Of a stretch of DNA of 64,000 bases, positions 57,540 through 60,623 are shown piece by piece. The translations under genes were made by a program, and so were the position numbers. Below the pieces are notes generated by a model. It was given only the letters and a program-made list of their open reading frames with translations, made no database searches and had not been told where the DNA came from. Origin of the DNA: Collibacillus ludicampi (GTDB lineage: Bacteria > Bacillota > Bacilli > Tumebacillales > BOQE01); the NCBI RefSeq assembly GCF_023705585.1, contig NZ_BOQE01000001.1, forward strand, positions 3,814,710 to 3,878,709, read 5' to 3'. Numbering within the stretch: position 1 is the first letter of the stretch; each line of letters opens with the position of its first letter.

Positions 57540-57944
57540 CTATTGAAAAATCTCCACAACGCCCTGAGGCGCACGCATACTATTTTGGATTGCTCTTATC
57601 TGTGCGTTTGTGAGTCTGCGGGCGACAAGCACGAATGAGGACATTTCATCGTTAAAGTTTATCGTTCTTAAGTCTGCAACGTTCTGACTTCCTCGAAACA
57701 CACGGAAATCACCTTGATAGTTGATATCCTCGAACAGAACTAATGTCACTCGATTAGGGTTCATTCTGTTCTGGACACGGAAACTTGACAATAAATCGTT
57801 GAAATCCAAGGCTCGAGCGTCCCGTACGGCTACTTCCCCACCGCGGAATACGATACGCCGTCCCATGAAATTGATATTCTCAAACAATTCAAGCATCAGA
57901 CCTCGTCCACGTCTCTGGCTGGCCTGCGTATTTGTTTGCACCAT
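57540..57944 (-). CDS. Two-repeat beta/gamma-crystallin domain protein
   Basis: 134 residues from ATG 57944 behind AGGAGGTG. Two tandem Greek-key-like repeats: LELFENINFMGRRIVFRGG...ALDFNDLLSSFRV (~18-57) and LVLFEDINYQGDFRVFRGS...INFNDEMSSFVLV (~68-107). Each ends in the calcium motif N/D-N/D-x-x-S/T-S (NDLLSS 49-54, NDEMSS 98-103). Bacterial members bind Ca2+ and are stability or stress proteins, some found in dormant cells. No signal peptide. Short N-terminal (QRRGRG) and C-terminal extensions. Single gene. Confidence 0.82.
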   Translation of the reverse strand: MVQTNTQASQRRGRGLMLELFENINFMGRRIVFRGGEVAVRDARALDFNDLLSSFRVQNRMNPNRVTLVLFEDINYQGDFRVFRGSQNVADLRTINFNDEMSSFVLVARRLTNAQIRAIQNSMRAPQGVVEIFQ

Positions 57945-58111
57945 GTTCTTCACCTCCTGATAGTAGGAGATGAAAAATAGATTATAATTGAACCGGGCAA
58001 GCACCTTAGACGATTCGTTTGTTTTAAGAACGTTCGTTAAGCGAAAGATAGAGTCACAAAAAAAACCGGCGCTTGCCTAATAACAATGGGCTTTTACGAA
58101 TTCCCAAAATG

Positions 58112-58213: not shown

Positions 58214-59752
58214 TTACAACGGTATATTACCATGTTTCTTCGGCGGTCTGGTCTCCCGTTTGTTGCGCAGCAATTCGAGGCCCTCAAGCAACTTCATTCT
58301 TGTCTCGCGCGGGTCGATCACATCGTCGACCATACCAGCCGCCGCTGCCACATAAGGATTCGAGAATTTTTCTTTGTACTCTGCGATCTTTTGCGCACGG
58401 GTTGCCGCCGGGTCATTACTTTCCGCAATCTCTTTCGCATAAATAATGTTGGCGGCACCTTCCGATCCCATGACGGCTACCTCACCGGTCGGCCATGCAT
58501 AGACGAGATCAGCACCGATCGCCTTGGAGTTCATCGCGACATAGGCGCCGCCGAACGCTTTTCGCAAAATGACTGTAATTTTGGGAACGGTTGCTTCCGA
58601 GTATGCATAGAGGATTTTCGCCCCGTGACGGATGATTCCGCGGTGTTCCTGCAGAACTCCCGGGATAAATCCGGTAACGTCTTCAAACGTGATCAAAGGA
58701 ATGTTAAATGCGTCACAGAAGCGGATAAAACGAGCGATTTTATCAGAAGAATCGATATCCAGGCCACCGGCCATAAATTTCGGCTGGTTCGCCACGATGC
58801 CAACAGGCTGCCCTGCCATACGTGCAAAACCGACAACCGCATTCTTCGCGAAGTTCGCGTGAATCTCCATGAAGTCTCCATGGTCAACGACTAAATGAAT
58901 GACATCACGGACATCATACACTTTCGTTCCTTCCACTGGGACTACATGCATGAGTTCATCCCTGTAGTCATCTTCAAAATCGGATGTATAAGGAATTTGC
59001 GGCGGATCCTCAAGGTTATTCTGCGGCAAGAAGGAAAGGAGGCGACGTACATCATTCAGCACCTCCTCTTCACTTTTAGCGGTAAAATGAGCCACACCGG
59101 AAATACTCGATTGCGCACGGGCACCACCGAGATCTTCACTTGAGATTTTCTCCCCGGTCACCGTTTCAATCACTTTAGGACCTGTGATGAACATTTGCGA
59201 AGTTTTTTCCACCATGAAGATAAAATCTGTGATCGCGGGACTGTACACGGCACCTCCCGCGCAAGGCCCCATAATCACAGAAATCTGCGGAATAACACCC
59301 GAGTAAATCGAATTGCGGTAAAAGATGTGTCCATATCCGTCTAATGATGCCACACCTTCTTGGATGCGCGCACCGCCGGAGTCATTCAAGCCGATGATGG
59401 GCGCCCCCGTCTTCGCAGCGAGATCCATGATCCGCGCGATTTTCAATGCATGCATTTCGCCCAGGGCACCGCCAAACACGGTAAAATCTTGAGCGAACAC
59501 ATATACCGTGCGTCCGTTGATTTTGCCCCATCCCGTAACGACCCCTTCACCGGGTGCTTCTTCGGTAATGTGAGTGCCACGATGTTCGATGAACGTATTG
59601 ATTTCGCGGAATGTCCCTTCGTCTAGCAGAATATCTAAACGCTCCCGTGCGGTTAATTTCCCTTTTTCATGTTGTTTCATGATCCGCAGATCGCCGCCAC
59701 CAAGTTCAATCTTGCGACGGCGTTCTTGCATTTCAAGAATCTTGGATTCCAC
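58214..59752 (-). CDS. mmdA: Acyl-CoA carboxylase / methylmalonyl-CoA decarboxylase carboxyltransferase subunit
   Basis: 512 residues of the biotin-dependent carboxyltransferase family: GKLTARERLDILLDEGTF, GALGEMHALKIARIMDLA, GLNDSGGARIQEGVASLDGYG, GPCAGGAVYSPAITDFIFMV and GFIPGVLQEHRGIIRHGAK. Moves CO2 between biotin and propionyl-/methylmalonyl-CoA. Known as PccB/MmdA; no biotin subunit in the window. Start GTG 59752 after AGGAGG. It is in the mcm operon but 457 bp after mce, with repeats between. Confidence 0.93.
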   Translation of the reverse strand: MESKILEMQERRRKIELGGGDLRIMKQHEKGKLTARERLDILLDEGTFREINTFIEHRGTHITEEAPGEGVVTGWGKINGRTVYVFAQDFTVFGGALGEMHALKIARIMDLAAKTGAPIIGLNDSGGARIQEGVASLDGYGHIFYRNSIYSGVIPQISVIMGPCAGGAVYSPAITDFIFMVEKTSQMFITGPKVIETVTGEKISSEDLGGARAQSSISGVAHFTAKSEEEVLNDVRRLLSFLPQNNLEDPPQIPYTSDFEDDYRDELMHVVPVEGTKVYDVRDVIHLVVDHGDFMEIHANFAKNAVVGFARMAGQPVGIVANQPKFMAGGLDIDSSDKIARFIRFCDAFNIPLITFEDVTGFIPGVLQEHRGIIRHGAKILYAYSEATVPKITVILRKAFGGAYVAMNSKAIGADLVYAWPTGEVAVMGSEGAANIIYAKEIAESNDPAATRAQKIAEYKEKFSNPYVAAAAGMVDDVIDPRETRMKLLEGLELLRNKRETRPPKKHGNIPL

Positions 59753-59781
59753 TGCTTTTCCTCCTATCTTGAAAACTAGTG

Positions 59782-59987
59782 CTTGGGTGGGTGTATCGCT
59801 TTCGTCCCGCCCGGATTCTTAACAGAAGTTGCGGGACGACCTTCAACTCACCTCTGCGCTGCAAAGCGATATAACCCACCCAAAAGCCACTCCGATTATT
59901 TGGGCAGACTCAATCCTCTATTTCCACTCAAGAAAGTTTTCTTCTTCTCATGGTGACGCTTGGGCATGTGTGGCTTTCTTGATAACT
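59782..59987 (-). repeat. Structured direct repeat, copy 1 (mmdA-proximal)
   Basis: About 205 bp, diverged from the adjacent copy at 59991-60191 (roughly 85-90% alike over the last ~150 bp, by eye). It contains a long inverted repeat TTGGGTGGGT-TATCGCTTT / AAAGCGATA-AACCCACCCAA, a nested CGTCCCGC / GCGGGACG hairpin, and AAAGCCAC / GTGGCTTT. No coding frame. Non-coding RNA or miniature mobile element are both possible. Confidence 0.75.
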
Positions 59988-59990
59988 ATT

Positions 59991-60191
59991 ACTTAGGTGC
60001 GATGAGGTTGGTCTTGTCTGGATTCTTACCAGAAGTTGCGAACGACCTTCCACTCACCTCTTCGCTGCAAAGTGATACAACCCACCCAGAAGCCACTCCG
60101 ACTATTTAGGAAGACTCAATCCTCTATTTCCACTCAAGAAAGTTTTCTTCTCATGGTGCCGCTTGCGGCATGGGCGGCTACTTGCAAAACT
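59991..60191 (-). repeat. Structured direct repeat, copy 2 (mce-proximal)
   Basis: Aligned with copy 1 from GGATTCTTA to the GGCATG region with few changes. Its outer GGGTGGG-type stem is lost but AGCCGC / GTGGCT pairing is kept with a compensatory-type change (G-C to G-U). A GCCGC-AA-GCGGC hairpin occurs here where copy 1 has a weaker one. Confidence 0.7.
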
Positions 60192-60198
60192 GCTTCTT

Positions 60199-60216
60199 GG
60201 AATAGGTGACTATTCC
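60199..60216. terminator. Small hairpin overlapping the mce stop codon
   Basis: A perfect hairpin GGAATAG-GTGA-CTATTCC includes the mce TAG stop. No T tract; may be an RNA-processing or stability element. Confidence 0.4.
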
Positions 60217-60623
60217 CCATGTACACGCTGGCAATACTCAGTCAGGACGCCGCCTGTGTCTTTCGGGTGCAAAAAAGCAATCAGTTTACCATGCCCTCCA
60301 GGTCGCGGTTCTTCATCGATCAGGCGGATGCCCGCCTCTTTTGCCTCCCGCAATTTTGCGCGAATATCCGCTACGGCGTAAGCGACATGATGAATCCCTT
60401 CACCGCGTTTCTCGATAAATTTGGCAATCGGGCTGTCCGCAGAGGTGGGTTCAAGCAGTTCGATCGTACTTCCCCCCACTTGTAAAAAAACGGCACGTAC
60501 CTGCTGATCGGAAATGACCTCTTCATGTACGACTTGCAAACCAAGTGTACTTTGATAAAAAGGAAGCGCTTTCTCTACGGATGTGACCGCAATTCCCAGA
60601 TGATCGATCTTTTCCGGGCGCAT
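60210..60623 (-). CDS. mce: Methylmalonyl-CoA epimerase
   Basis: 137 residues of the glyoxalase/VOC fold: KIDHLGIAVTSVEKALPFYQ (metal His), LLEPTSADSPIAKFI, GEGIHHVAYAV (metal His) and a C-terminal Glu in VLTEYCQRV. Interconverts (R)- and (S)-methylmalonyl-CoA. ATG 60623 after AAGGGGG, 5 bp past mcmA2. Confidence 0.95.
   Translation of the reverse strand: MRPEKIDHLGIAVTSVEKALPFYQSTLGLQVVHEEVISDQQVRAVFLQVGGSTIELLEPTSADSPIAKFIEKRGEGIHHVAYAVADIRAKLREAKEAGIRLIDEEPRPGGHGKLIAFLHPKDTGGVLTEYCQRVHGE

What the first reader, a model, noticed from the sequence alone, without database searches (positions are those of the whole stretch)
59782..60191. Two tandem ~205-bp structured repeats inside the methylmalonyl-CoA operon
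The mce-mmdA gap (457 bp) is filled by two diverged direct repeats. Each has long inverted repeats, including TTGGGTGGGT-TATCGCTTT facing its complement and a nested CGTCCCGC hairpin in copy 1. Some paired positions change in a compensatory way (AGCCGC with GTGGCT in copy 2). The operon genes flanking them are intact and co-directional, so the repeats are transcribed. They match no RNA family I recognise (not cobalamin, T-box or group II domain V). Either a new structured RNA (perhaps linked to B12 metabolism or mRNA processing) or a miniature mobile element.
Basis: seen in the sequence. Interest (0 to 1): 0.72.

Follow-up and report, generated by a model that had tools for sequence, protein, structure and literature searches.

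The report
Dispersed nested-hairpin mobile repeat family
The two repeats between the methylmalonyl-CoA genes are worn-down copies of a scattered DNA element, present in well over a hundred places in this bacterium, that folds into long hairpins stacked inside one another and has a distant relative in another bacterial family; it looks like a small mobile element with no known mover, not a vitamin B12 switch.

Summary
The mce-mmdA gap holds a 414-bp insert (59768-60181) of two degenerate copies (89% identical) of a dispersed family with at least 111 clusters, roughly 200 hairpins by my estimate, in this 4.09-Mb genome. Tumebacillus lacus and 17 other relatives have 1-28 nt in the same gap. Elements are modular nested hairpins: outer arms (A or C type), zero to four inner tiers, then a tail ending in a REP-like palindrome. 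They begin at YTTGAAAA and end at CTAY. Insertion sites resemble CTAY^YTTGAAAA and show no target duplication. About 75% of clusters share one replication orientation, and most sit antisense to flanking genes. The helices show covariation. A covariance model found a distantly related dispersed family (at least 13 places) in another taxonomic family of the same order. There is no Rfam match, no Y1 (IS200/RAYT) transposase in the genome, and the resident IS110 elements have unrelated ends. Best reading: a non-autonomous mobile element, spread by conservative insertion, possibly as a folded single strand, by machinery not identified. It resembles BOX/REP-type repeats but belongs to none that I could test. 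No evidence links it to B12.

The parts
59768..60181 (+). whole insert (two element copies) in the mce-mmdA gap
   Evidence: family boundaries; gap is 1-28 nt in 18 relatives
59764..59767 (+). CTAT, left half of the insertion site; reads ATAG of the mmdA ATAGGAGG ribosome-binding site on the minus strand
   Evidence: CTAY preferred in left flanks of isolated copies
59768..59977 (+). element copy 1 (A type, left arm shortened by about 21 nt)
   Evidence: R1 score 54.3 bits, 59776-59886
59783..59802 (+). outer left arm TTGGGTGGGTGTATCGCTTT
   Evidence: pairs with 59863-59883
59863..59883 (+). outer right arm AAAGCGATATAACCCACCCAA
59803..59810 (+). inner left arm CGTCCCGC
   Evidence: pairs with 59831-59838
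59831..59838 (+). inner right arm GCGGGACG
59978..60181 (+). element copy 2 (A type, left arm largely deleted)
   Evidence: R1 score 30.3 bits, 59967-60092
60156..60181 (+). terminal tail with palindrome GCCGCTTGCGGC, ending in CTAC (GTAG on the minus strand)
   Evidence: tail module TE
60182..60189 (+). TTGCAAAA, right half of the insertion site (degenerate YTTGAAAA)
58214..59752 (-). mmdA-like methylmalonyl-CoA carboxyltransferase gene, intact, downstream in the operon
   Evidence: 84% identical relative in T. lacus
60210..60623 (-). mce-like methylmalonyl-CoA epimerase gene, intact, upstream in the operon

Best explanation
The repeats are two decayed copies of a non-autonomous mobile element that has spread to well over a hundred intergenic sites of this genome. 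An element runs from YTTGAAAA to CTAY. It carries a long imperfect hairpin (outer arms of type A or C), often with further hairpin tiers (type B) nested inside, and a tail with a palindrome about 10 nt before the CTAY end. It inserts without duplicating the target, at sites resembling CTAY^YTTGAAAA, which is also the junction that a circularised element would have. Such sites often overlap ribosome-binding sites (RTAGGAGG on the other strand), which would explain why many copies sit just upstream of start codons. I infer that an enzyme supplied in trans recognises the folded ends and moves the element by excision and conservative insertion. The bias in replication orientation suggests insertion as a folded single strand at replication forks, as IS200/IS605 elements do. 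Shown: dispersal, empty site, ends, site preference, absence of target duplication, orientation bias, conserved covarying helices. Inferred: trans mobilisation, circle intermediate, single-strand route. Unknown: the enzyme.
For: Dispersed copies: 55 matches, 109 with a consensus query, GGTCGTNNNGC 249+273 against controls 71+43. Nested module order LA-LC-LB-RB-RC-RA-TL-TE. Empty site: gap of 28 nt in T. lacus and 1-21 nt in 17 other relatives against 457 nt here. Ends: left flank CTAY at 55-83% per position, right flank YTTGAAA at 52-79%, near random beyond. Left and right 12-mers within an element are no more alike than shuffled ones (7.99 against 7.83 of 12; 6.9% of shuffles as high), so no target duplication is seen. 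Orientation: 83 of 111 clusters in one replication orientation, and 18 of 20 where the flanking genes point in different directions. Helices: 98.2% of cells paired, covariation score 0.240 against 0.091 shuffled.
Against: No mobiliser was found: no Y1 transposase, and the IS110 elements have different ends. Other transposase and reverse-transcriptase families were not searched. No strain of the same species was available to show presence or absence at single loci. Orientation to genes and to replication are confounded: where genes lie on the lagging strand, 8 of 11 clusters follow the genes instead. The origin and terminus were placed from gene-strand bias only. Helices also covary with a relative family, which fits a conserved function as well as transposon end recognition.
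Confidence: 0.7

Rival explanations
1. A cis-acting structured RNA: the minus (RTAG) strand is transcribed within operons and the hairpin stack tunes mRNA processing, decay or translation of the downstream gene. Mobility would be secondary.
For: Both neighbours lie antisense to the element's CTAY strand at 65 clusters, against 14 with both sense. Many copies lie 16-40 nt upstream of a start codon. Helices covary. The RTAG strand folds more stably in 117 of 133 hairpins and carries more G-U pairs, 255 against 173.
Against: Host genes are unrelated; the site is empty in relatives; the G004 full-length copies whose neighbours I read lie in the sense orientation or between converging genes; the orientation bias is explained as well by replication; the window copies have lost much of one arm.
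Confidence: 0.15
2. IS200/IS605-type non-autonomous element (a specific form of the best explanation): a Y1 HUH transposase, now lost or outside the assembly, moved it as a single-stranded circle, cutting after CTAY at both ends.
For: Target tetranucleotide at the left flank and the same one at the right end, a palindrome about 10 nt before the right cut, no target duplication, replication-orientation bias; RTAG plus palindrome resembles GT[AG]G-tagged REPs (PMC3733652, PMC6006769).
Against: No PF01797 match in the genome. The right flank also shows YTTGAAA preference, which IS608-like insertion does not need. The left end has a giant hairpin in place of a short one.
Confidence: 0.3
3. Classical DDE-transposon MITE, mobilised through terminal inverted repeats.
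For: TGAAAA near the left end is complementary to TTTTCA near the right end.
Against: The right inverted repeat is followed by a conserved tail of about 40 nt, so it is not terminal; no target duplication.
Confidence: 0.06
4. Spread by reverse transcription of a folded transcript (group II intron-like or SINE-like).
For: Structured element, two-sided site preference, orientation bias.
Against: No reverse transcriptase search was made; no Rfam intron match.
Confidence: 0.07

Closest known systems
BOX elements of Streptococcus pneumoniae (PMC3049150)
   Same: Dispersed intergenic repeats with conserved end modules and a variable number of inner modules, predicted to fold strongly; 67-637 bp long.
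   Different: BOX has tandem boxB modules between boxA and boxC, terminal inverted repeats and target duplications. Here the modules are nested left and right arms of one hairpin and no target duplication is seen. I did not compare the sequences.
REP elements (GTAG- or GT[AG]G-tagged) and RAYT transposases (PMC3733652, PMC8266576, PMC6006769)
   Same: High copy number, intergenic; RTAG tetranucleotide next to an imperfect palindrome at one end.
   Different: REPs are 20-65 nt; this is about 185-600 bp with giant hairpins. The tag is GTAG or ATAG in about equal parts. No Y1 transposase in the genome.
IS200/IS605 insertion sequences
   Same: Target tetranucleotide at the left flank, palindrome before the right cut, no target duplication, replication-strand bias.
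   Different: No tnpA; target preference also on the right side.
bcr1 of Bacillus cereus and other bacterial MITEs
   Same: Short dispersed intergenic repeats with strong predicted folding.
   Different: No sequence or end relation was tested; the MITEs named in PMC3733652 have 15-30 bp terminal inverted repeats.
IS110/IS1111 elements with bridge RNA
   Same: No target duplication, circular intermediate, two-sided target choice, structured non-coding part (from general knowledge).
   Different: The resident IS110 copies end in unrelated sequence.

Membership tests
GTAG REP / RAYT system | Y1 (PF01797) transposase in the genome | tested here: not met
   0 matches; 5 control genomes ring
GTAG REP / RAYT system | GTAG tag beside a short palindrome | tested here: inconclusive
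   RTAG, G or A in about equal parts, beside GCCGCAAGCGGC at the element end
GTAG REP / RAYT system | unit of 20-65 nt | tested here: not met
   units from about 184 bp up to several hundred bp
IS200/IS605 derivative | no target duplication and a fixed left target tetranucleotide | tested here: met
IS200/IS605 derivative | cognate TnpA or parent element with the same ends | tested here: not met
   no PF01797 in the genome; TnpB not searched
MITE of a DDE transposon | terminal inverted repeats with target duplication | tested here: not met
   inverted repeat not terminal on the right; no duplication
IS110/IS1111 derivative | ends shared with a resident IS110 element | tested here: not met
BOX element | boxA/boxB/boxC sequence modules | not tested
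   only architecture compared, from PMC3049150
known Rfam RNA family (cobalamin riboswitch, T-box, group II intron) | covariance-model match | tested here: not met
   Searches (window region; seven family loci): no relevant match

The most novel reading that the evidence does not exclude
A new class of mobile element whose working form is a multi-tier folded strand: it grows by adding hairpin tiers inside hairpins and spreads by conservative insertion at sites like its own circle junction. The machinery would be none of the HUH, DDE or IS110 systems considered here, and it would be shared by at least two bacterial families of one order.
Probability: 0.25. Interest if true: 0.8.

Novelty: new variant of a known kind. 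Interest (0 to 1): 0.58.

Why it matters
Roughly 200 long hairpins, many in operons and close to ribosome-binding sites, are likely to affect gene expression and replication in this genome, yet no enzyme that moves them is apparent. The nested-tier architecture, the site preference without target duplication and the replication-orientation bias make a testable case for folded-strand transposition by unknown machinery. The relative in another family makes it tractable by comparison.

Tried and rejected
B12-linked or operon-specific RNA: rejected, since copies are dispersed and the site is empty in relatives. Known RNA family: no relevant match at E up to 10 or up to 1. RAYT or IS200 mobiliser in the genome: PF01797 absent. 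IS110 mobiliser: three genes found, ends unrelated. Target duplication: within-element 12-mers no more alike than shuffled. Phage, plasmid and viral-contig collections: no match. G014 hit (L122): one 34-bp tail-like match that is not repeated in that genome, left as possible chance. Autonomous parent element: no long element with matching ends was seen among the fetched stretches.

Full report
Observation. The mce-mmdA gap (59753-60209, 457 bp) holds two direct repeats, 89% identical over 164 bp. The 'compensatory' pair cited for copy 2 is a one-sided change giving a G-U wobble on the minus strand, so the two copies alone give little covariation. No Rfam family matches the region at E up to 10 except irrelevant weak microRNA and msiK scores.

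Dispersed family. A search of the window's own genome (G000, 4.09 Mb, 7 contigs) with the pair gave 55 matches in about 40 places, and a two-type consensus gave 109. The core motif GGTCGTNNNGC occurs 249+273 times against control counts of 71+43, which I read as roughly 200 hairpins. One hundred stretches around hits were fetched, and with the window they contain 111 clusters with modules in a single orientation. None lies inside a gene called by my simple codon-usage caller.

Architecture. On the strand that ends in CTAY, a simple A element reads YTTGAAAA-CTAGTGCTTGGGTGGG-TGTATCGCTTTGCGC-(internal loop)-GAAGGTCGTCCCGC-loop-GCGGAACGACCTTC-(internal loop)-GCGCTGCAAAGCGATACAACCCACCC-AAAAGCCACTCC...CTTTTCATCCTCTGATGGCGCCGCTTGCGGCATGGGTGGCTAY. 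C elements have other arms and a shorter tail. In many copies one to four further left arms are stacked before the first right arm (72 simple, 41 with two left modules, 15 with three, 6 with four or five), in nested order such as LA-LC-LB-RB-RC-RA. C and A elements often occur in tandem, sharing the junction CTAY-YTTGAAAA. The window pair are two A copies with deletions in the left arms.

Insertion. In T. lacus (mmdA 84% identical) and 17 other relatives the mce-mmdA gap is 1-28 nt, so 59768-60181 is an insert of 414 bp; 43 bp of gap remain. Flanks of isolated copies are near random beyond the site but prefer CTAY on the left and YTTGAAA on the right. Left and right 12-mers of the same element are no more alike than shuffled pairs, so there is no sign of a target duplication. 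CTAY on this strand is RTAG on the other, as in RTAGGAGG ribosome-binding sites. That link is inference, but it would explain the many copies 16-40 nt upstream of starts, including the one at mmdA.

Orientation. Both neighbouring genes are antisense to the CTAY strand at 65 clusters, against 14 with both sense. With origin and terminus placed from gene-strand bias near 1.55 and 3.55 Mb, 83 of 111 clusters share one replication orientation. Where the two neighbours point in different directions 18 of 20 do. Among clusters with lagging-strand genes on both sides, 8 of 11 follow the genes. Replication and transcription are therefore not separated cleanly.

Structure. In A and C copies 97.8% of cells of the 34-pair structure are standard pairs, 11 pairs have changes on both sides, and the covariation score is 0.260 against 0.134 shuffled and at most 0.097 when slid. 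Many of these differences separate two subfamilies, so they are few events. Within A copies one pair shows G-C to A-T in 12 copies. The internal-loop strands of A copies are nearly invariant. The RTAG strand folds more stably in 117 of 133 hairpins, a weak hint because the copies are related.

Relatives. A covariance model built from A and C copies was run over 399 genomes of the class, with only 8 candidates scored per genome. Besides the own genome, one rang: G004, same order, another family, E 2.5e-7. A DNA search showed at least 13 places in G004, most of them partial. Copy L264 aligns to C elements with score 49 (mean 45), against 19 +/- 3 for shuffles, mean 18 for reversed and 20 for reverse-complemented controls. 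A second full G004 copy (L270b) shows little pairwise similarity, so the link rests mainly on L264, L265 and L266. In the 15-bp inner helix across both genomes 98.2% of cells pair and 5 pairs change on both sides. T. lacus, the 12 other same-order genomes held, plasmids, phages and viral contigs gave nothing.

Mobiliser. No Y1 transposase was found. Three IS110 transposase genes exist, but the ends of the pair that can be delimited are unrelated.

Reading. The insert is best explained as a decayed tandem pair of a non-autonomous mobile element. The folded-strand route is the mechanism I favour (IS200/IS605-like, about 0.3 on its own); the enzyme is unknown. Compared with BOX elements (PMC3049150) it shares modularity and copy number but not the tandem layout or the target duplication. 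Compared with GTAG REPs (PMC3733652, PMC6006769) it shares a tagged palindrome at one end but not the size or the transposase. I file it under neither. The literature searches found no description of such a family in this group, within the open-access library only.

Noticed in passing
L253 about 521-2319 and L254 about 743-2330: Two IS110-family insertion sequences over 90% identical, one with an internal deletion of about 220 bp that breaks the transposase frame; a third, different IS110 gene lies in L252.
   Followed up: partly
L122:1501-1534 (G014): A single 34-bp stretch like the element's tail (TTTTCAT..GGTGCCGCTTGCGGCATGGG..CTAC) in a genome of another family, next to a transposase-like remnant; not repeated there.
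   Followed up: partly
window 57540-58004 (-): Small gene downstream of mmdA that looks like a beta/gamma-crystallin-type protein (two similar halves).
   Followed up: no
L118:53-302: Three tRNA genes directly beside an element copy.
   Followed up: no
L270:1-2590 (G004): Three copies of the G004 family within 2.5 kb, between ordinary genes.
   Followed up: partly
L175, genome coordinate about 857943: A lone A-type left arm with no right arm, a truncated element.
   Followed up: partly
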